This document shows, one piece after another, positions 2,313-17,788 of a stretch of 64,000 nt of DNA; position 1 is the stretch's first letter; every line of letters begins with the position of its first letter. Origin of the DNA: Atlanticothrix silvestris CENA357 (lineage in GTDB: Bacteria > Cyanobacteriota > Cyanobacteriia > Cyanobacteriales > Nostocaceae); assembly GCF_016056295.1 (NCBI RefSeq), contig NZ_JAECZB010000001.1, positions 1 to 64,000 of the forward strand, in the 5' to 3' direction. The notes below the pieces were generated by a model. It was not told the DNA's origin. It saw nothing but the letters and a program-made list of their open reading frames with translations, and did not search any database. Position numbers and translations under genes: made by a program.

Positions 2313-4346
2313 ATGAAAAAGCATTTATCACTGCCGTCACCATATCCAAATGACCTAGAGCAACTACAATCATACCCGGTCAAGCTGATGCAGCATCAGG
2401 AAGAACTAGCCCACCAGTTGACACAAAAGATTAACCACATTATTGCCAGTAGCCCAGCTACAGCGATAATGCTGCAAGAGATTGCTCAATTGTTAGGAGT
2501 TGCCTTCAAAGTAGATTGCTGCTGCTTAGTTACTGTGACGAGCGAAGTATCAGGCGAAGCTACTACTGCGAATTGGTGTTCTAATGAATATTTAGAGATG
2601 CCACACCCCAGTGAAATGTTCTCTATGGAACAGTTACTGATGGACTTACCAGTAGTACAATGTGCTGCTGAAACTTTGACTATAGAGGACATCTCCACAA
2701 TTCAAAACAGTTTGGTAGTTGGATGTCAATATTTACCACTACCAATTAAAGCAGTTTTGGCAATTCCTGCTCGGTTTGGGGGCAAAAATAATGGCGTAAT
2801 TAGTCTGATCAAATTCCAACCCTGTGATTGGAGTGAATCAGAAAAACAACTGTTAAAAGTGGTAGAGTCTTCTTGTGCGATCGCTTTTTCTCAGATAGCA
2901 CAAGCACAGTTAATTGCCAGTCAACAGCAGTTTCTGGAAAAGACGAACCAACATCAAAATTTGATCAAGCAATTAACAATACTAAGTCGTACTAACTTGG
3001 AGTTAAATCAAATGCTCCAGTTAGCGATAGCTTCTACTGCCGAATCTCTTCAGGCAGATCGAGGCTTGCTCATCCTGCTGAAATATACAGATCCATTATT
3101 TAGGTTTCAACCGAAAAAGCAAATTCCCAATGCCAAAGCTACTGTTGTTGGTGAATGGAATCGTGAATCGTCAACCATCCGTCGCCATAAAATAGATAAA
3201 TTAGAGCAGTCATTCTCCCTGTTAAATTGTGGTTTATGCCAGCGTGTGTTCACAGAAGTTGGAAAACCAGTCATCATCAATGACTATACAGCTCTTCCGG
3301 ATACGTCAACATCTGCTCCATTGTTTGTAATTGAGGTGTTACCTGCGGTGTTGTTAGTACCATTAGAAAACCAAGGCAGGATTTTAGGATTTTTGGTGTT
3401 ACAGCAAGCAGTAGCTCGCAATTGGCAACTAGCAGAATTAAATCTTGTGGAAATGGTCTGTGCCCAAGTAAGTAATGCCATAATTCAGTCACAGACATTG
3501 CGGCAAGTACAAACCCTGGTAGATGATCGCACGGCCAAGCTCAAAAGTAGTCTGGAACTCCAGGGAAAATTACATGAAAGAACACGGCAATATGTTGAGC
3601 AACTACGAGAACTTAACGAACTCAAAGATGAATTTCTCAGCAACATGAGCGATCGCTTGCGCTACCCTTTAACAAATATGCTGCTGTCAATCAAAAATTT
3701 ACGGCTGCCGGGAATAGGCCCAGAGCGTCAGGTTAGATACTTGGATATTCTAGAGCAAGAATGTACTAAAGAAATTAACTTAATTAATGATTTGCTGACA
3801 CTCCAGAAACTAGAGTCTCACCAAGAACCGCCGCAATTTGAAACTATTAATTTAAATCCGAAAATCCAGGAATTAAAGGTATCTTTTGATAAAAAGCTGG
3901 TAGATAAAGGGTTAAGCATAACGCTAGATTTGCCAGAGGAGCAGTTAAAATTACAAACCGAGCTAGATAGTTTTGACCGTATTCTACAAGAGTTGTTAAC
4001 TAACGCTTGTAAATACTCAGAGCGTGAGAGTATTGTCCACTTGGAAGCTTTTCACCAAGTTGAGAAACAAATCGATCAAGTTATTATTAAGGTAACTAAC
4101 ATAGGGCGTGGCATATCTGAAGAAGAAGCGACCTATATTTTTGATCGGTTCCGTCGTGGTAAAGGTCGCTGGACACCAGGTACTGGCTTAGGACTGGCTT
4201 TAGTTAAGTCTTTAGTACAGCATCTAAATGGCGAGATCACGGTTGAGAGTGTTTCAATCTCAGATTCTCAGTTGAGCGAAATTTGCTTTACCCTGATACT
4301 GCCCCAATTTTCTGACGACAGCAAACTATATTCTGAAAGTGACTGA
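2313..4346 (+). CDS. GAF-GAF sensor histidine kinase lacking the H-box histidine
   Basis: This 677-residue cytoplasmic protein has two GAF-like sensor domains (about 40-190 and 225-395) joined by coiled coil, then a dimerisation region (about 435-500) and a HATPase domain (about 545-665). The ATPase N box (ELLTNACKYS) and the GTGLGLALVKSL lid are present. The H box reads NMSDRLRYPL, so residue 447, where HisKA proteins have the phospho-accepting His, is Asp. The G1 box reads NIGRGI where DxGxG is usual, a variant known in other cyanobacterial kinases. The ATG at 2313 is preferred over 2283 because GAGGG precedes it. Its stop overlaps the next gene's start by eight bases, so the two are probably co-translated. 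A scaffold or ATP-sensing pseudokinase is possible. Confidence 0.85.
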   Translation: MKKHLSLPSPYPNDLEQLQSYPVKLMQHQEELAHQLTQKINHIIASSPATAIMLQEIAQLLGVAFKVDCCCLVTVTSEVSGEATTANWCSNEYLEMPHPSEMFSMEQLLMDLPVVQCAAETLTIEDISTIQNSLVVGCQYLPLPIKAVLAIPARFGGKNNGVISLIKFQPCDWSESEKQLLKVVESSCAIAFSQIAQAQLIASQQQFLEKTNQHQNLIKQLTILSRTNLELNQMLQLAIASTAESLQADRGLLILLKYTDPLFRFQPKKQIPNAKATVVGEWNRESSTIRRHKIDKLEQSFSLLNCGLCQRVFTEVGKPVIINDYTALPDTSTSAPLFVIEVLPAVLLVPLENQGRILGFLVLQQAVARNWQLAELNLVEMVCAQVSNAIIQSQTLRQVQTLVDDRTAKLKSSLELQGKLHERTRQYVEQLRELNELKDEFLSNMSDRLRYPLTNMLLSIKNLRLPGIGPERQVRYLDILEQECTKEINLINDLLTLQKLESHQEPPQFETINLNPKIQELKVSFDKKLVDKGLSITLDLPEEQLKLQTELDSFDRILQELLTNACKYSERESIVHLEAFHQVEKQIDQVIIKVTNIGRGISEEEATYIFDRFRRGKGRWTPGTGLGLALVKSLVQHLNGEITVESVSISDSQLSEICFTLILPQFSDDSKLYSESD

Positions 4347-4929
4347 ACAACACAACACTATAGACGATTTTGATCTCATCACCCCTGGTGAGGAAACAAG
4401 CCAAGAAGATTCTTTGACTGCTAATTTGGGTGAATTGCCAACTGTAGCAGTCAAAATTGAGAAAATAGCAGAACGACAACGGCAAATTACTGCTAATGTG
4501 CAAATTCCTCACCCTATTGAGCAAATTTGGAAGGTGCTTACAGATTACGAAGCCTTGGTTGATTTTATACCCAACCTTGCTAAAAGTCGCTTGCTTGAAC
4601 ATCCTAACGGTGGTATTCGACTTGAACAAATAGGCTCTCAGCGCTTACTCAATTTCAACTTTTGTGCGCGTGTGGTTTTAGATCTCGAAGAATGCTTCCC
4701 TAAAGCAATTAATTTTCAAATGGTAGAGGGAGATTTTAAAGGCTTTTCTGGTAGTTGGTGTCTAGAGCCTTATTTTTTTAGTGAGCATGTAGGAACAAAT
4801 CTCTGTTATACCATCCAAATTTGGCCTAAACGGACTATACCAGTGGGTATTATTGAACGTCGCCTCAGCAATGACCTGCGGTTAAATCTTTTAGCTATTC
4901 ACCAACGTGTGGAGCAGTTAGCCAATTAA
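4339..4929 (+). CDS. SRPBCC (START/polyketide cyclase-like) protein
   Basis: This 196-residue protein opens with GTG inside the end of the kinase gene. After an acidic N-terminal tail of about 45 residues it has the cyclase/COQ10-like SRPBCC pattern: VQIPHPIEQIWKVLTDYE, then IPNLAKSRLL, a central sheet, and a long C-terminal helix. This fold makes a cavity for lipids or other hydrophobic ligands. No catalytic residue can be named. The eight-base overlap with the sensor kinase suggests a shared operon, possibly a ligand-binding partner of the kinase, which is inference. Confidence 0.75.
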   Translation: MTEQHNTIDDFDLITPGEETSQEDSLTANLGELPTVAVKIEKIAERQRQITANVQIPHPIEQIWKVLTDYEALVDFIPNLAKSRLLEHPNGGIRLEQIGSQRLLNFNFCARVVLDLEECFPKAINFQMVEGDFKGFSGSWCLEPYFFSEHVGTNLCYTIQIWPKRTIPVGIIERRLSNDLRLNLLAIHQRVEQLAN

Positions 4930-5000
4930 AACTTTTAGAGCAAAATATTAAGTCTTTACTTGGGGAAAATTTATAACAAAAGCAAAGACTTAATAAAATA

Positions 5001-5039
5001 CAAAGCCTGGCTCTTTTGTTACCAGACTTTGACTTTTTC
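5001..5039 (+). terminator. Probable terminator after the kinase-SRPBCC pair
   Basis: CAAAGCCTGG and CCAGACTTTG pair with one mismatch around an 11-base loop, followed by a T-rich run on the plus strand. On the minus strand the same hairpin lies about 20 bases beyond tRNA-Glu, so it may act in both directions. Confidence 0.6.
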
Positions 5040-5048
5040 TTATTTAAA

Positions 5049-5121
5049 TACCCCCAGGGGAATTCGAATCCCCGTTACCTCCGTGAAAGGGAGGTGTCCT
5101 AGGCCTCTAGACGATGGGGGC
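5049..5121 (-). tRNA. tRNA-Glu (TTC anticodon)
   Basis: Reverse-complemented, the 73 bases fold as a cloverleaf: acceptor GCCCCCA with TGGGGGT, anticodon stem CCTCC/GGAGG around the loop CTTTCAC (anticodon TTC), and a T arm with the standard TTCGAAT loop. The discriminator base is A and CCA is not encoded. In cyanobacteria this tRNA also supplies glutamyl-tRNA for 5-aminolevulinate, hence heme and chlorophyll. Confidence 0.95.
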
Positions 5122-5318
5122 ATCAGACTCAGACCTTTTATAAGTTAACTAATTTTCTTCTTGATGTCAACAAATTCTGCAAAAAAAGTTTAGGAGGCAG
5201 CTAAGCTGTTGTTATTAGCGGGCGATCGCCAGTTAATATTCAAATAAGTTCTAGTTTTGAAATCGGAACTTCAGGAACACAGCGAAAAGGCAGATATTAT
5301 TATCCTGTTGTCTGAGCT

Positions 5319-7172
5319 TTATGGAGCAGGATCAGTAAGCTGTTGATTGATTGGCTGAGTTGGTGGAATCTGTTCAATAGGAATCAGTGCTTCCATCACC
5401 GACTTAACAATTGGTGCAGCGACAGTAGAACCATAAGCATTTTCTCCTTTTGGTTCATCTGCCAATGCCAAAACTACATACCGGGGAGATTCCACGGGTA
5501 AAATTGCCACGAAGCTAGTGATTCTAGCACCCTTGATATAACCACCAGAAGGGCTAGCTTTTTGGGCTGTACCAGTTTTACCCCCAATGCGATATCCCGC
5601 AATTTGAGCCGATTTACCACTCCCTTCAGAAACAACAGTTTCCATCATTTCTACTACCTTTTGGGCAATTGCACTAGAAAAAATTTGACGTGGTGCAGGG
5701 CGAGCAGGTGAATAATGCATCTGCCCTTTACTATCAATTAGCCCCTGAACTACATGGGGCGTGACTAGTTTGCCACCATTAGCTAAGGCTCCGTGCAATT
5801 GCACCAACTGTAAAGCGGTCAGAGAAAAGCCTTGCCCAAAGGAGCTAGTTGCTGGTTCAATGGGTGAGCCAATAAATTCTTCTTGAGTTTTGAGGCGACC
5901 GCTAACTTCAAAAGGTAAATCTGTATCTACTTTTTGTCCTAGACCCAAACGCTCTAACCAGTTGTAGTATACTGAAGGGCGCAATCGCTGGATAATTTGC
6001 ACCATGCCGACGTTGCTAGAGGTTTGAAGAATTTGAGCAATGTTAATTCGGCGATAACCATTGATCACAGCATTTTTGATGATCCGGTCAGCGACTTTAA
6101 TAGTACCGGGATCATCAAATACATCATCTGGTTTAATGACACCATTTTCTAGAGCGATCGCCACATTCAAAGGCTTGAAAGTTGATCCTGGTTCATAAAG
6201 ATCAGCTACTGTCCAATTTTTAAACAACGAAATATCTGCTTTCGAGTATTCATTGGGGTTATATGCAGGCTGAGAAACTAAAGCAAGTAGAGAACCATCC
6301 AAGGCATCCATCACGATTACCGCGCCGCGTTTCGCGCCAAACTTCTCCAATTGTTCTTTGAGAGCAATGCGAGCAGCCCTTTGTAGACGACTATCAATAG
6401 TCAGTTGTAATTGTAGGTCATCAAAATGCAAAAATCCTTCTGGTGCATGATCTGGCATCAAGGCCCCGTTACCCGCCCGACTCAGGCGCACCGTCTGCAT
6501 AGAACGTTCTAATAACTTCTCTTGACTATATTCCACCCCTGCTTGACCACGACGGTCAATATTCACATAGCCCACCACATCAGCGGCTAAATCTTCTGTC
6601 GGATAAAATCGTGAGTATTTTTGAATTAACTCCAAGCCATTTAAACGCAATGTGCTGATGCGATCGGCACTTGCTTCTGGTAAGGCAGCAGCAAGTGTAA
6701 TTCCACTTTTTCGGCTTTGAAAAGTTTTGACTAATTCAGCAGGGTTTTTGTCCAATATTGGGGCTAGTCGCTCTGCCATTTCTTCATTAGACTTTTCAAA
6801 CAATTTGGGATGAGCAAAAACTGTATATACAGGACGGTCAATTGCCAACACATTTTTATTCCGATCCACCATTAGGCGGCGAGGCGTAAAAGGCCGCAAA
6901 TTCACCATTTGTTGGTTTCGGGCCTTCTGCGTTAGCTTTGAACCTTGTATAATCTGTAGTCTGTATAAATTGATACTTAAACCCAAGCCTGCGGCAATTA
7001 ATATGCCCCATGCTATTAACACTCTCGATTTGGTGTTTGGAGTCTGGTCTTGGGTCTTAGAGGCAGGTCTCTCTATCCCCTCTGGCCTGGAAGACTTTGG
7101 TCGTCTCGTAAATGGTGGCTGCCAAAAATTTCTCAATTTTGATCTGTTTGGTGACTTCTGCATTAAGTTCAT
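5319..7172 (-). CDS. ftsI: Septal peptidoglycan transpeptidase FtsI (PBP3-type)
   Basis: This 617-residue class B penicillin-binding protein crosslinks septal peptidoglycan in the periplasm. It has a basic cytoplasmic N-terminus of about 48 residues, one membrane segment (about 50-70), the dimerisation/pedestal region (about 90-230) and a transpeptidase domain (about 270-585). The active-site motifs are complete: SxxK at Ser330-Lys333 (STFK), SxN at 385-387 (SSN) and KTG at 532-534. The FtsL-like membrane protein starts just upstream and is transcribed the same way, as expected for a division operon. A second ATG three codons in (7163) has slightly better ribosome-binding spacing. Confidence 0.95.
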   Translation of the reverse strand: MNLMQKSPNRSKLRNFWQPPFTRRPKSSRPEGIERPASKTQDQTPNTKSRVLIAWGILIAAGLGLSINLYRLQIIQGSKLTQKARNQQMVNLRPFTPRRLMVDRNKNVLAIDRPVYTVFAHPKLFEKSNEEMAERLAPILDKNPAELVKTFQSRKSGITLAAALPEASADRISTLRLNGLELIQKYSRFYPTEDLAADVVGYVNIDRRGQAGVEYSQEKLLERSMQTVRLSRAGNGALMPDHAPEGFLHFDDLQLQLTIDSRLQRAARIALKEQLEKFGAKRGAVIVMDALDGSLLALVSQPAYNPNEYSKADISLFKNWTVADLYEPGSTFKPLNVAIALENGVIKPDDVFDDPGTIKVADRIIKNAVINGYRRINIAQILQTSSNVGMVQIIQRLRPSVYYNWLERLGLGQKVDTDLPFEVSGRLKTQEEFIGSPIEPATSSFGQGFSLTALQLVQLHGALANGGKLVTPHVVQGLIDSKGQMHYSPARPAPRQIFSSAIAQKVVEMMETVVSEGSGKSAQIAGYRIGGKTGTAQKASPSGGYIKGARITSFVAILPVESPRYVVLALADEPKGENAYGSTVAAPIVKSVMEALIPIEQIPPTQPINQQLTDPAP

Positions 7173-7235
7173 CCGTTGTCTTTTGTCAGGAGTTAGAGTC
7201 TTGATGAAAACACTAATGATCCTTGACTCTCAACT

Positions 7236-12496: not shown

Positions 12497-13126
12497 CTAT
12501 TCCCTCCAGTCTAATGGCGGTTCAATTAAAGTCTGCTCTGAGTTACCAACGCGGACACCTGGTTTGTTAATAATTTTTACAGTGCTTGCTTGAGGCCCTT
12601 CCTCGCCCTGCTCCAAGGAAAAATGGACACCTGTACCGATTTCTAAGCGTTCAAAGTCGTCATGCAGCACACTATTGCAGTGGAAGTAAATTTCCCGGCC
12701 ATCCAAGGTTTTCAAGAAGCCATAACCTTGGTCTCGAAATAATTTAGTGACAAGTGCGGTGGTTTCTTGAACTTCTTCATAACTCTTGGAGCGATCGCTT
12801 TCATGCTGCTGTTTGGTAAGCTTGAAAAGTTGCTGACGAGCTGCATTAAAAGCATCTCTGATCACTACATCCAGAGGTTCGTATTGGTTACTCTCTGACG
12901 GATTGCTTTCTGCTACAAGTTCATGACCAGGTGGTACGGTCATATCAATCCGGACACGGTAGGGAGATCCACTGCGGGGGCGATCGTGTGCCTTTTCAAT
13001 CGCAATGTGACAGCTACTGATATAGTTGCAAATATGTTCTAACTTGGCAATTTTTTCATTAACTAAAGTATCAATCGCATTTGTTTTCTCTACATTGCGA
13101 TATGTAATTTCTGGTGGAATTTTCAT
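12497..13126 (-). CDS. HPF/RaiA-like domain fused to a cold-shock domain
   Basis: From the ATG at 13126 (the upstream TTG at 13162 is less likely) the 209-residue product has an N-terminal HPF/RaiA domain (about 1-110: MKIPPEITYRNVEK, then EKIAKLEHICNYISSCHIAIEK, then VRIDMTVPPGHE). HPF and RaiA bind the small ribosomal subunit in stationary phase. A cold-shock OB fold follows (about 125-190): RDQGYGFLKTLDGREIYFHCNS, then IGTGVHFSLEQGEEGPQA. The RNP-type aromatic residues (GYGFL, YFHC) are kept. The fusion suggests a ribosome-linked RNA-binding factor for stress or slow growth, which is inference. It follows the phosphoribosyltransferase gene on the same strand. Confidence 0.85.
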   Translation of the reverse strand: MKIPPEITYRNVEKTNAIDTLVNEKIAKLEHICNYISSCHIAIEKAHDRPRSGSPYRVRIDMTVPPGHELVAESNPSESNQYEPLDVVIRDAFNAARQQLFKLTKQQHESDRSKSYEEVQETTALVTKLFRDQGYGFLKTLDGREIYFHCNSVLHDDFERLEIGTGVHFSLEQGEEGPQASTVKIINKPGVRVGNSEQTLIEPPLDWRE

Positions 13127-13189
13127 ATTTTTGTCTAAATCCAAATAAGCAATCTGAAACAACTAAATTCCCAAACGCCAATTCTGGCA

Positions 13190-13879: not shown

Positions 13880-14450
13880 GGTGTTAAGCTCCTAATTGTT
13901 GTCTCAGAAAATCAGTTTTTAAGTATTAACGTGCATTTAATCCTTGGCTTTCTGCCTTAAACACGGAATTTGAGAACAAATATTGTTGACTTTACCTAGC
14001 TTTTGAGCTTTATCTTTATAATATTGATCATAGAAACCTAAACATTACGTGCCCTCTGACTAACGAGGCGACATCCTCAATCGATTAATCTACCTAATGG
14101 ATGAGTTATTGATCTGGCTGGAGTCCGGGCTAATACTTTTATTATTAAATAATTCATCAGTGCGTTAGCGTAGCTTACCGTAGGTATCGCCTCCATCTGC
14201 AAATTATTTGGGTCGATCAAAGCTCTTATGTATCTGAATATTGATACTCAGATTCACTTGTGGGTTTTTATCTAAATCTGCTAAATTCTTGACGTTTTCT
14301 CTTTTTTGCCTTTACAAAAACAAGCTGATTTGGTTTTTATATAGGTATTTGCCAAAGATATTAACTTTACGGGCAAAAGATAAAGTAATATTTACATCTG
14401 AAAGTGTTCCCGTATATCCCTTAATTTTTGGCAAAAACCGATCCAGTGCC
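13880..14450. other. Gene-free stretch, 0.57 kb
   Basis: It separates the divergent phosphoribosyltransferase gene and the TpsB gene. A dispersed repeat copy lies at 14159-14192. Frames upstream of 14451 in the TpsB frame start only with TTG and read as a hydrophobic, low-quality extension, so they are treated as non-coding. Confidence 0.5.
14159..14192. repeat. Copy of a dispersed GCGTAGC-type repeat
   Basis: GCGTAGCTTACCGTAGG with its flanks resembles the short palindromic repeat common between genes in Nostoc-type genomes. A related copy in the opposite sense lies at 46899-46969 in this window. Confidence 0.5.
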
Positions 14451-16241
14451 ATGCTCGATAAATACTCTCATAACTTTGCAGTGCGCTATTTACCGCTGAG
14501 TATATTTGTGTTGCTTAGCGGCTTGATTACTAGGCCTTTAAAAGCCCAAGCTATTGATACTACACAATTACCTAATAGCAGTTTCATATTGTCGCAGCAA
14601 CTTCCACCACCGCAAGATGTCCAACCACCTGTGCCTTCTCCTTTACCATCGCCTCAACTGCCACAGCAGCTCCCCCCACCAGCAGAACTACTTCCACCCT
14701 CTACGCCATCTACCACACCTGAGCAGCCATTACCTGAAAAAATTCCTCAGACTATCACTGTAGAAAAGTTTGAAGTCATTGGTAGTACAGTATTCAGTCC
14801 TGAAGAGTTAGCCCAAGTCACTGCTGAATTTACCAAAAAACCTATTTCTCTAGCTGAAGTTTTTCAAGCTCGTTCTAAAATTACCGATTTATATATCCAA
14901 AAAGGCTACATTACTTCTGGCGCTTATATTCCACCTCAAACAATTAAGTCTGGTGTAATTAAAATTCAAGTGGTTGAAGGTAAGTTAGAAGATATCCAGA
15001 TAACTGGTACTGCGCGACTCAACTCCAATTATGTACGCAGCCGCCTCGCTATAGCTACATCAGCACCGCTGAATCGGGAACGGTTGCTAGAGGCACTGCA
15101 ACTATTACAACTCAATCCTTTAATTCAAAATTTGTCTGCTGAATTGTCAGCAGGATCGCGTCCAGGCGAGAGTGTCCTACAAGTCGAGATCAAAGAGGCA
15201 CAATCCTTCAGTACTCAAATAGTTTTGGATAATGGGCGATCGCCTAGTGTGGGTAGCTTTCGTCGCCGATTACAAGTCAATGAAGCCAACTTACTAGGAC
15301 TGGGAGATGGTTTAAGTCTAGCTTACACTAATACTGATGGTAGCAATGCCTTTGATGCTAGCTATACGTTGCCTCTAAATCCTTATAATGGGACACTTTC
15401 TTTTAACTTTGGCACTGCATCAAGCAATGTCATCGAAGAGCCTTTCAACTTCCTAGATATCCAATCTTCTTCTCGCTACTACGAACTGACATTTCGCCAG
15501 CCAGTAATCCAAACTCCCACGCAGGAATTTGCTCTAGGTATAACAGCTTCTCGGCGTGAGAGTCAAGTATCTTCTCTACCTTCCCTAGAAATTTCTCCTA
15601 ATGAAATTTCACCTGGAGCTGATGCAGAAGGGCGCACACGTATATCTGCGTTGCGCTTTTTTCAGGAGTGGACATCTCGTAATAGTCGCGAAGTGGTTGC
15701 TCTGCGTTCTCAATTTAATCTAGGCGTAGGTGCTTTTGATGCCACGATTAACTCCGAAACTCCTGATAGCCGCTTTTTCGCGTGGCAAGGGCAAGCACAA
15801 TGGGCGCGTCTTTTAGCTCCTGAAACCTTACTGTTACTTCGTGCAAATACACAACTGGCATCTAGAGCGCTTTTACCTTTAGAGCAGTTTGGCATAGGTG
15901 GACTAGACAGTGTTAGAGGCTATCGTCAAGATTTATTGCTGGCGGATAATGGTACTTTTGCTTCTGCTGAAGTTCAAATACCAATTCTCCGTTTACCCCA
16001 AATAGATAGTACGTTGCAAATCGCTCCTTTTATTGATTTCGGCATTGCTTGGAATAACTCAAGTAGAGATAATCTCGACCCAAATACCCTTGCTTCTGTG
16101 GGCTTCGGCTTACGTTGGTTACAAGGCGATCGCTTCAGCGCTCGTCTAGACTGGGGCATTCCTTTGATATCTGTTCAATCAGAGGGAAGAACGTGGCAAG
16201 AAGATGGGTTGTACTTTTCCATACTTTATAATCCATTCTGA
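14451..16241 (+). CDS. TpsB-type outer-membrane transporter (ShlB/FhaC family)
   Basis: From the ATG at 14451 this is a 596-residue protein with a signal peptide (cleavage near LKAQA, about residue 34), a Pro- and Gln-rich linker (about 45-95), two POTRA domains (about 100-250; ITVEKFEVIGSTVFSPEEL is typical of the first) and a C-terminal beta barrel ending in Phe. The barrel has the GLDSVRGYRQD motif of the FhaC/Omp85 lid loop. Such proteins export a large TpsA exoprotein across the outer membrane. No TpsA gene is in the window. Cyanobacteria often carry orphan copies whose cargo lies elsewhere. Confidence 0.9.
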   Translation: MLDKYSHNFAVRYLPLSIFVLLSGLITRPLKAQAIDTTQLPNSSFILSQQLPPPQDVQPPVPSPLPSPQLPQQLPPPAELLPPSTPSTTPEQPLPEKIPQTITVEKFEVIGSTVFSPEELAQVTAEFTKKPISLAEVFQARSKITDLYIQKGYITSGAYIPPQTIKSGVIKIQVVEGKLEDIQITGTARLNSNYVRSRLAIATSAPLNRERLLEALQLLQLNPLIQNLSAELSAGSRPGESVLQVEIKEAQSFSTQIVLDNGRSPSVGSFRRRLQVNEANLLGLGDGLSLAYTNTDGSNAFDASYTLPLNPYNGTLSFNFGTASSNVIEEPFNFLDIQSSSRYYELTFRQPVIQTPTQEFALGITASRRESQVSSLPSLEISPNEISPGADAEGRTRISALRFFQEWTSRNSREVVALRSQFNLGVGAFDATINSETPDSRFFAWQGQAQWARLLAPETLLLLRANTQLASRALLPLEQFGIGGLDSVRGYRQDLLLADNGTFASAEVQIPILRLPQIDSTLQIAPFIDFGIAWNNSSRDNLDPNTLASVGFGLRWLQGDRFSARLDWGIPLISVQSEGRTWQEDGLYFSILYNPF

Positions 16242-16305: not shown

Positions 16306-16344
16306 AAACAAAAAAGCGGAAAAGTATTTCTGATTACTCTTCCG
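16306..16344 (-). terminator. Terminator of the GWSGG peptide gene
   Basis: On the minus strand CGGAAGAGTA pairs with TACTTTTCCG (one mismatch, 8-base loop), followed by CTTTTTTG. It is about 60 bases past the stop of the small peptide gene. Confidence 0.75.
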
Positions 16345-16401: not shown

Positions 16402-16656
16402 CTAATAGCCATGTTTAGAGTACCTTCCGCCGCCAGACCAGCCGCCACCAGACCAGCCGCCGCCAGACCAGCCACCACCAGACCAGCTACCACCAGACCA
16501 GCCACCACCAGACCAGCTACCACCAGACCAGCCACTAAAAAAACCACCCTCGATAGTTCCCATATCCTGAGTATTCAGTTCGCTGAGAAAATTTTCGGAA
16601 TCGTGAAATAGCTCATAACCACTAGGATACAACTCAAAAATTTTGATGTCAGCCAT
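16402..16656 (-). CDS. Gly-Gly-leader peptide precursor with seven (G/S)WSGG repeats
   Basis: The ATG at 16656 follows a near-perfect GGAGG by seven bases; it gives 84 residues. Residues 1-38 look like a leader: polar and acidic, ending LSELNTQDMGTIEGG, the ELxxxD...IxGG form used by peptides processed by C39 peptidase transporters and by many cyanobacterial modified peptides. The core starts FFS, then seven pentads GWSGG or SWSGG, then GRYSKHGY. The repeat is also visible in DNA as 15-base units at 16429-16533. No modifying enzyme, protease or transporter lies nearby, so it could be an orphan precursor acted on in trans or an unmodified secreted Gly/Trp peptide. It converges on the TpsB gene and has its own terminator. 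I know no exact family. Confidence 0.75.
   Translation of the reverse strand: MADIKIFELYPSGYELFHDSENFLSELNTQDMGTIEGGFFSGWSGGSWSGGGWSGGSWSGGGWSGGGWSGGGWSGGGRYSKHGY
16429..16533. repeat. Seven 15-base coding repeats
   Basis: Units of the form CC(A/G)CCAGACCAGC(C/T)(A/G) repeat seven times without spacers. They encode the (G/S)WSGG pentads of the small peptide gene. Differences between units are silent or switch Gly and Ser, so the peptide pattern is kept. This is not a CRISPR array. Confidence 0.9.
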
Positions 16657-17788
16657 TAGGCTTCCTCCTTTATTATCAAGCAAATCTTTTTCTAATCACA
16701 ACTAAAAATTAGACTATGTATTGTCTAACTTTAATTTCGATATTTACAAATTCAATTTTAAAAATCTATGCCTTTAAATTGATTATTTAGACATAAATAA
16801 TAGAATTCGGTCTAGATATTTTTTATATAGCCCTTGATTTATTAATAAATAAACGAGCAAAATTAAATTTTTAACATGCTAAGAGTTAATAGCAAAAATA
16901 TCTCCAGATTAAAATTTTGTATCAATAAATAGTCCTACGTTGCAGACTACGAGTTAAAAACAAAAACTGGTATATCTTTGATGTATTATTATTTACTGAT
17001 ATTTGTCTTAATTTTAACATCTCTACACAATTAAAGAGTTAAGCATAATTACTTGAGTTATGTCTCATAAAAGTGATGATAAGTTTGCTATTCATCAAAT
17101 GCACATCTCTAATAGCCAATAATCCATACTCTCTAGAATTATTGATAAAGCCAAGCATATTTAAATTCAAGGGAGTTTGATTATCATCTCAAAAGATCGC
17201 CCATACTCGTAATTATTATCTTTAGCTACTTTATATCCTAGTTCAGAAAAATCTGTAGTTATATAGTGTTTTTTATCACTTATTTCAGTAGTTACTATTA
17301 CTTTATACAAATCATACTTTTAATTAAAAAATCTTGGCAACCAGTATTATTTCATCAGTACATTTACTAATGTATTTTTTATAAGTTTACATATTAATTA
17401 GTTTAATAAAACGTAGTTGGAGTTTCTGAGTGGTTTCTCTCTATTCCGGATAAAAATCCGCATTTTTACCATGTATCATATTAGAGAAAAGAATTTATTC
17501 TAGATATTTAAGAAAAAATTCAATTGGAGTATAGTGACCAAAAGTTCTATATTTTCTAACTTTGATCATGAGTAAAGGAGAAATCTCGGACTCCTATATT
17601 GCGAAATTGGTTGGTAAGTATATCCTTGCAGACACTTAATCTTGCTAAAAACAATGGTGTTCACACCTGTACATTGTATTTTATCTAAAAAAGCTCCTTT
17701 TTCAGAAAATGGGGACTAAAAGTTAAGGCTTGTTTGAGTAATACTTTTTGATGGCAGATCCAAAGTCATGAGAGTTTGAGGAAGAGTG
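16657..17788. other. AT-rich gene-free stretch, 1.1 kb
   Basis: It is strongly AT-rich and has no credible frame on either strand. It lies between the divergent GWSGG peptide gene and the GGDEF/EAL gene, so it holds both promoters. I see no repeat array. It may be a decayed accessory segment or an unusually long regulatory region. Confidence 0.5.

What the first reader, a model, noticed from the sequence alone, without database searches (positions are those of the whole stretch)
16402..16656. Orphan Gly-Gly-leader peptide with seven (G/S)WSGG pentads
Seen: strong GGAGG start, a 38-residue leader ending IEGG, and a core of seven near-identical pentads (Trp-Ser-Gly-Gly with Gly or Ser before), then GRYSKHGY, with a dedicated terminator. 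Known: this leader form marks peptides cut and exported by C39-peptidase ABC transporters, many of them modified. Inferred: an exported Trp/Gly-rich peptide, perhaps a signal, surface or antimicrobial product. No maturase or transporter is adjacent, so processing in trans is needed. The repeat differs by silent changes and Gly/Ser swaps, which suggests selection on the peptide.
Basis: partly seen in the sequence, partly recalled or inferred. Interest (0 to 1): 0.65.

Follow-up and report, generated by a model that had tools for sequence, protein, structure and literature searches.

The report
Stand-alone Trp-Ser-Gly-Gly repeat export peptide
A filamentous cyanobacterium encodes, far from any export machinery, a small peptide with a repeated Trp-Ser-Gly-Gly tail whose address tag and gene-control region match those of peptide genes that sit in export and modification clusters elsewhere, so it is most likely switched on with them and processed by their shared equipment.

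Summary
In detail: an 84-aa ORF (16402-16656, minus strand) with GGAGG start, a 38-residue Gly-Gly leader, seven (G/S)WSGG pentads and a hairpin-T terminator. It is not a lone curiosity. Its leader belongs to a large cyanobacterial leader family, matching the published description of HopA1-associated 'Family 1A' precursors, found beside C39-peptidase ABC exporter, HlyD, SurA, kinase (APH) and HopA1 genes. A Nostocaceae-restricted branch (56 of 217 genomes) is encoded away from such clusters and has extreme Gly/Ser/aromatic/His cores ending in W, Y, F or C. New here: these stand-alone genes, including the window's, share with cluster precursor genes a promoter block (TTATGTCTA-N17-CCTTGATTT, about 140 bp before the ATG; 40/61 and 44/226 versus 5/1052 random genes) followed by a hairpin with strong covariation that is absent from Rfam. 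The window's genome has three long exporters with intact C39 motifs. Best reading: a trans-encoded, co-regulated precursor, cleaved after Gly38 and exported. The end function (surface/matrix peptide, modified peptide, or signal) is unproven; matrix-like is my first choice. An NblA-family gene in the same genome carries the upstream part of the block.

The parts
16402..16656 (-). 84-aa double-glycine precursor ORF (stop codon 16402-16404)
   Evidence: Translation; homologues
16543..16656 (-). leader, residues 1-38, ending IEGG (L-12, D-8, M-7, I-4, G-2, G-1)
   Evidence: alignments; leader consensus
16405..16542 (-). predicted exported core, residues 39-84
   Evidence: cleavage site inferred from the GG rule
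16429..16533 (-). seven (G/S)WSGG pentads, residues 42-76
16405..16428 (-). C-terminal tail GRYSKHGY (residues 77-84); 91% of stand-alone relatives also end in W/Y/F/C
16664..16668 (-). Shine-Dalgarno GGAGG
   Evidence: SD-like motif in 60 of 61 relatives
16705..16732 (-). conserved hairpin AAAGTTAGAC-AATACATA-GTCTAATTTT, probably near the 5' end of the transcript
   Evidence: window fold; helix list; covariation on 47 sequences; no Rfam match
16739..16745 (-). candidate -10-like TAAATAT
   Evidence: position in the shared promoter alignment; inference
16762..16770 (-). second promoter box (GCATAGATT here; family consensus CCTTGATTT, -35-like)
16788..16796 (-). first promoter box TTATGTCTA, 17 nt before the second box
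16658..16807 (-). whole conserved upstream block (model R1, 75 bits, best match in the genome)
16317..16344 (-). intrinsic terminator-like hairpin with T tract

Best explanation
This is a trans-encoded member of the cyanobacterial HopA1-associated 'Family 1A' double-glycine precursor family. Shown: its leader is homologous to that of precursors inside clusters with a long C39-peptidase ABC exporter, HlyD, SurA, an APH-type kinase and HopA1, and its upstream control block (bipartite promoter box plus a covarying hairpin) is shared with those cluster precursor genes. Inferred: it is transcribed together with them; the leader docks on a long exporter elsewhere in the genome (contigs C23, C17, C68); the C39 domain cuts after Gly38; and the 46-residue Gly/Trp/Ser core is exported. 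Most likely the core acts outside the cell as a low-complexity, self-associating surface or matrix peptide, with aromatic residues as stickers and Gly/Ser as spacers, comparable in logic to the EbfG proteins of Synechococcus. Dehydration of its serines by a kinase/HopA1 pair in trans is possible but not shown.
For: Leader homology: 67 of 99 Nostocaceae genomes, 44 of 56 genera; own-genome paralogues at C75, C37, C23 and C55, most of which lie beside kinase and HopA1 genes. A relative with a Gly/Ser/Trp core (L060) lies inside a cluster with exporter, HlyD, SurA, HopA1 and APH. Stand-alone branch in 56 of 217 Nostocaceae genomes, in at least four different gene contexts, with synteny kept inside clades. 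Shared promoter: TTATGTCTA-N17-CCTTGATTT 115-150 bp before the ATG in 40/61 compositionally selected peptides (54 of them stand-alone), 44/226 other family precursors, 5/1052 random genes. Own genome: of the five best matches of the whole block, the best is the window gene, three precede other GG peptides (one of them next to a long exporter) and one precedes an NblA-family gene. Hairpin covariation: 82% of cells paired, 82 double changes against 37+-7 in shuffles, score 0.43 against 0.25 shuffled and 0.14 or less when slid. Long exporters with Cys/His/Asp motifs intact. All 56 stand-alone-positive genomes have 2 or more HopA1 genes against 111/161 negatives, Fisher 5e-8.
Against: No expression, processing or secretion data. 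The HopA1 association is confounded by phylogeny (genus level p=0.048). The shared upstream block may partly reflect descent from a duplicated cluster gene rather than present co-regulation. About a third of the selected peptide genes and most cluster precursors do not reach the box threshold (many of the latter may be downstream genes in an array, not tested). The matrix role rests on composition and on analogy with EbfG, whose cores are not known to be homologous. Cores differ greatly between sister species, which could equally mean antimicrobial diversification or weak constraint.
Confidence: 0.6

Rival explanations
1. It is a true modified peptide (RiPP) made in trans: an APH-type kinase and HopA1 lyase encoded elsewhere phosphorylate and eliminate the serines of the WSGG pentads, giving a dehydroalanine-rich, perhaps antimicrobial, product.
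For: Same leader family as kinase/HopA1 cluster precursors; such pairs dehydrate Ser/Thr in class V lanthipeptides and thioamitides (PMC9486802; PMC8153245); one serine after Trp in every pentad; in-cluster relative with a similar core (L060).
Against: Eyles et al. report that Family 1A cores lack conserved Ser, Thr or Cys. The stand-alone branch swaps serine-rich for His- or Tyr-rich cores freely. No cyclase is linked. An APH/HopA1 pair also lies, with no precursor found near it, at C86 of this genome, and 214 of 217 family genomes have at least one HopA1, so presence alone says little.
Confidence: 0.2
2. It is an exported intercellular signal, for instance a substrate of a HetC-like long exporter, acting in filament differentiation or starvation responses.
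For: Strong matches to the stand-alone branch were found only in Nostocaceae among 388 genomes of the class; HetC's substrate is unknown (PMC10986499); an NblA-family gene (phycobilisome degradation) carries the upstream part of the control block.
Against: Cores are hypervariable and present in only about a quarter of Nostocaceae genomes, unlike a core developmental signal. No NtcA-site enrichment upstream (3 found, 2.4 expected).
Confidence: 0.12
3. The ORF is a decaying or barely used copy whose repeat array is slippage noise.
For: Few informative changes among the pentads; no close orthologue of the exact core was found.
Against: Intact start, SD, leader, promoter block, hairpin and terminator; best genome-wide match to the control block (the window was one of the 30 sequences the model was built from); leader under constraint in relatives (median dN/dS about 0.41); extreme core composition kept across 54 relatives.
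Confidence: 0.06

Closest known systems
HopA1-associated Family 1A precursor peptides of cyanobacteria (Eyles et al. 2021, PMC8153245)
   Same: Conserved leader ending in Gly-Gly, hypervariable core; the leader homologues found here lie beside HopA1 and phosphotransferase genes
   Different: The window gene and its branch are encoded away from HopA1 clusters and have low-complexity Gly/Ser/aromatic/His cores; the shared promoter and hairpin were not found described in the papers read
Double-glycine 'bacteriocin' precursors of cyanobacteria (Wang, Fewer and Sivonen 2011, PMC3140520)
   Same: Short precursors with GG motif; long C39 exporter with CAP_ED domain, HlyD, SurA
   Different: Those were found by screening around clusters; a gene far from any cluster would be missed
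EbfG1-4 of Synechococcus elongatus PCC 7942 (PMC4997328, PMC9981879)
   Same: Small GG-motif proteins secreted via a C39 exporter (PteB); detected EbfG1/2 fragments rich in Tyr, Ser and Pro; matrix/amyloid role shown
   Different: Encoded next to the exporter gene; mature EbfG proteins reported to have no homologues in other cyanobacteria; no homology to this core is claimed
Class V lanthipeptides (cacaoidin, lexapeptide)
   Same: APH-type kinase plus HopA1-type lyase are associated with the leader family
   Different: No conserved Ser/Thr/Cys pattern, no linked cyclase or decarboxylase, and a GG leader with C39 export

Membership tests
C39-processed double-glycine precursors | Leader motif with hydrophobic -12, acidic -8, hydrophobic -7 and -4, Gly-Gly at -2/-1 | tested here: met
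   L-12, D-8, M-7, I-4, G-2, G-1; same pattern across relatives
C39-processed double-glycine precursors | A C39 peptidase exporter with intact catalytic residues in the genome | tested here: met
   Long exporters at C23, C17, C68 with Cys, His and Asp motifs
C39-processed double-glycine precursors | Cleavage after GG and secretion | not testable with these tools
   Needs mass spectrometry of medium and sheath
HopA1-associated Family 1A precursors | Leader homologous to precursors lying beside HopA1 and phosphotransferase genes | tested here: met
HopA1-associated Family 1A precursors | Encoded next to HopA1 and phosphotransferase genes | tested here: not met
   Neighbours are a TpsB-type protein and an FHA-GAF-GGDEF-EAL protein; hence 'trans-encoded relative', not a cluster member
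Other curated precursor families (plantaricin C lantibiotics, HxsA and any other NCBIfam or Pfam model) | Match to a curated family model above its cut-off | tested here: not met
   No Pfam match and only a sub-threshold plantaricin C match in NCBIfam
Class V lanthipeptides | Dehydrated Ser/Thr closed to lanthionine with Cys | tested here: not met
   The core has no Cys, so no lanthionine within it is possible; dehydration alone is not testable here
EbfG proteins | Homology of mature part and linkage to the pteB exporter gene | tested here: inconclusive
   No linked exporter here; EbfG sequences were not compared directly; the source paper reports no homologues in other cyanobacteria

The most novel reading that the evidence does not exclude
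A dispersed regulon of double-glycine peptides, defined by a bipartite promoter and a new covarying hairpin, joins unlinked stand-alone aromatic/Gly-rich peptides, cluster-encoded peptides and an NblA-family gene, so that one shared exporter and modification system serves precursors scattered over the chromosome in response to a common (perhaps nutrient-stress) signal.
Probability: 0.4. Interest if true: 0.72.

Novelty: new variant of a known kind. Interest (0 to 1): 0.56.

Why it matters
Genome mining finds RiPP and bacteriocin precursors by looking next to exporters and maturases. If this reading is right, dozens of Nostocaceae genomes carry precursors that such mining misses, and the shared promoter plus hairpin offers a way to find them. 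It also gives candidates for the missing substrates of long C39 exporters such as HetC, and an entry to what controls this large peptide family. The low-complexity aromatic/Gly cores would be candidate building blocks of the cyanobacterial sheath or biofilm.

Tried and rejected
Conserved neighbours of the window gene: none of the flanking genes recurs next to relatives. Curated families: Pfam and NCBIfam gave no match above cut-off. Literature search for the leader string: no paper. NtcA sites upstream: not enriched. RNAalifold on the 150-bp upstream alignment of stand-alone genes alone found no structure and pair counting there was weak; only adding cluster precursors, whose arms differ, revealed the covariation. 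Even there RNAalifold's energy is near zero, so the case rests on covariation, not stability; the window hairpin alone folds only slightly better than shuffles (z -1.3). A first list of hairpins was chosen for having a helix and was set aside as circular; the 47-sequence set was chosen by promoter score, redundancy and position. The dN/dS of cores was computed but alignments of repeats are unreliable, so it is not used. The HopA1 co-occurrence was first counted on a sample chosen for lacking the leader, which is biased; the full family count replaced it. G205 was included by mistake; it is not counted as positive.

Full report
Observation. The ORF at 16402-16656 on the minus strand is exactly as described, with a strong GGAGG, a 15-bp tandem array and a terminator-like hairpin at 16344-16317. 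It stands in a 1.5-kb gap between a convergent TpsB-type (ShlB/FhaC) gene and an FHA-GAF-GGDEF-EAL gene. The pentads differ at three nucleotide positions only, two silent and one Gly/Ser, which is too little to argue for selection from the array itself.

Homologues. Searching 99 Nostocaceae genomes with the whole protein gave matches in 67. The conserved part is the leader, consensus M-A-N-I-x-I-x-E-L-x-P-x-G-Y-x-L-F-x-D-S-E-S-F-L-N-E-L-x-x-Q-E-x-x-x-I-x-G-G. A profile built from the aromatic/Gly-rich members found the branch in 56 of 217 Nostocaceae genomes; over 388 genomes of the class, all strong matches were inside the family. Cores of 54 stand-alone members are 27% Gly, 20% Ser, 16% Tyr, 9% His, 6% Phe, 4% Trp, with Ala+Val+Ile+Leu+Met under 2%, and 49 of 54 end in W, Y, F or C, against 113 of 236 other family members. 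Sister species often have quite different cores, for example WSHGG, GYGYSGG, HSCHSH or SGSVSGSV types. The leader is under constraint (median dN/dS about 0.41 over 1205 pairs; pairs are not independent).

Genomic setting. The stand-alone genes lie in several unrelated contexts, stable inside clades: 21 loci are convergent with a small membrane protein, mostly followed by a fasciclin-like gene, 10 lie near a cytochrome c-like gene, and four near an MnmE-like gene (these neighbour names are read from the sequence and were not checked against Pfam). None of the flanking genes of the window recurs. In the window's own genome the small-membrane-protein site exists at C105 without a peptide gene, so the gene has moved or the lineages are old paralogues.

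Machinery elsewhere. Other members of the leader family lie in clusters with a long C39 exporter (cyclic-nucleotide-binding domain, C39, ABC membrane and ATPase domains), HlyD, a PpiC/SurA-type protein, an APH-type kinase and HopA1. This fits the published description of Family 1A precursors (570 peptides in 183 clusters) and Wang's cyanobacterial clusters. The window's genome has precursor plus kinase/HopA1 sets at C23, C55 and C75, and three long exporters (C23, C17, C68) whose Cys, His and Asp motifs are intact. One in-cluster precursor, L060, itself has a GGWS/GGSWSTGG core, bridging the two groups. All 56 positive genomes carry at least two HopA1 genes, against 111 of 161 negatives; this agrees with a need for the cluster but is confounded by descent.

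Shared control region. Upstream regions of 61 compositionally selected genes (54 stand-alone) are strikingly enriched for common words. The shared block spans about 150 bp. A sequence model of it finds in the window's whole genome, as its five best matches, the window gene (2.6e-20), an NblA-family gene (4.7e-8; Pfam NblA 5e-14) and three GG-peptide genes, one divergent from a long exporter (weaker, 0.006 to 0.22). It also matches upstream of cluster precursors in other genera. The bipartite box TTATGTCTA-N17-CCTTGATTT, nearly always with exactly 17 nt between, starts mostly 130-142 bp before the ATG: 40/61 selected genes, 44/226 other family precursors, 5/1052 random genes. A weak -10-like stretch follows. 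In the NblA-family gene the box lies about 165 bp before the ATG and the hairpin part matches poorly.

Hairpin. Just downstream of the presumed -10 lies a hairpin whose arms differ between loci but remain complementary: GGTTAGAC/GTCTAATC, AGGATTAAAC/GTTTAATCTT, CAGTTAAGC/GCTTAACTG, CGGTTGAG/CTTAACCG. On 47 sequences chosen by promoter score, not by helix, 82.1% of cells pair, 82 cells show changes on both sides (shuffles 37+-7) and the covariation score is 0.43 (shuffles 0.25, slid versions 0.14 or less). G-U pairs are common, which speaks for RNA rather than a protein-binding palindrome. Rfam has no matching family. Limits: the alignment mixes related sequences, RNAalifold sees almost no stability, and no transcript start is known, so placing the hairpin in the 5' UTR is inference.

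Mechanism. Shown: intact gene, shared leader, shared control block, intact exporters in the genome. Inferred: co-transcription with cluster precursors, docking on a long exporter in trans, cleavage after Gly38, export of a 46-residue core. Of the possible roles, a low-complexity surface or matrix peptide fits best with the extreme composition, aromatic spacing, tolerance of core change and the EbfG precedent (efficient secretion needs the C39 cysteine; EbfG1-3 form amyloid). A dehydrated product made in trans by kinase and HopA1 is the main rival; a signal role is third.

Verdict. Real, and more interesting than first described, because the stand-alone peptide is tied to a known family of clusters by leader and by a common control element. 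It is a new variant of a known kind; the promoter-hairpin element itself appears undescribed in the papers searched, which is not proof that it is new.

Noticed in passing
L243 (own genome C75:142535-145641), element 1501-1607, ORF 1681-1860: An NblA-family gene (phycobilisome degradation; Pfam E 5e-14) carries the upstream part of the same promoter block as the peptide genes, hinting at a stress-linked regulon.
   Followed up: partly
L216 (own genome C86), 4689-7183: An APH/HopA1 pair lies among ordinary genes with no double-glycine precursor found nearby; HopA1 occurs in 214 of 217 Nostocaceae genomes and genomes without the leader family mostly have exactly one copy, suggesting a separate ancestral role.
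   Followed up: partly
L190 (G072), 3711-4635: Three tandem stand-alone precursors with three different cores (WGGGGYGWGG...CCCCCC, GGWGYGGWGG...CC, and SGSVSGSV repeats), a natural series of core diversification.
   Followed up: no
window 12497-13162, minus strand: Protein with a ribosome-hibernation type (S30AE) domain followed by a cold-shock domain in one chain.
   Followed up: no
window 14241-16241, plus strand: TpsB-type (ShlB/FhaC) outer-membrane protein convergent with the peptide gene; no TpsA partner was looked for beyond the nearest genes.
   Followed up: no
L050 10948-11241 (own genome C37): A 97-aa double-glycine peptide with core GYGYGYGYGYGYPRTRT followed by a long polar tail, preceded by the shared promoter block.
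   Followed up: no
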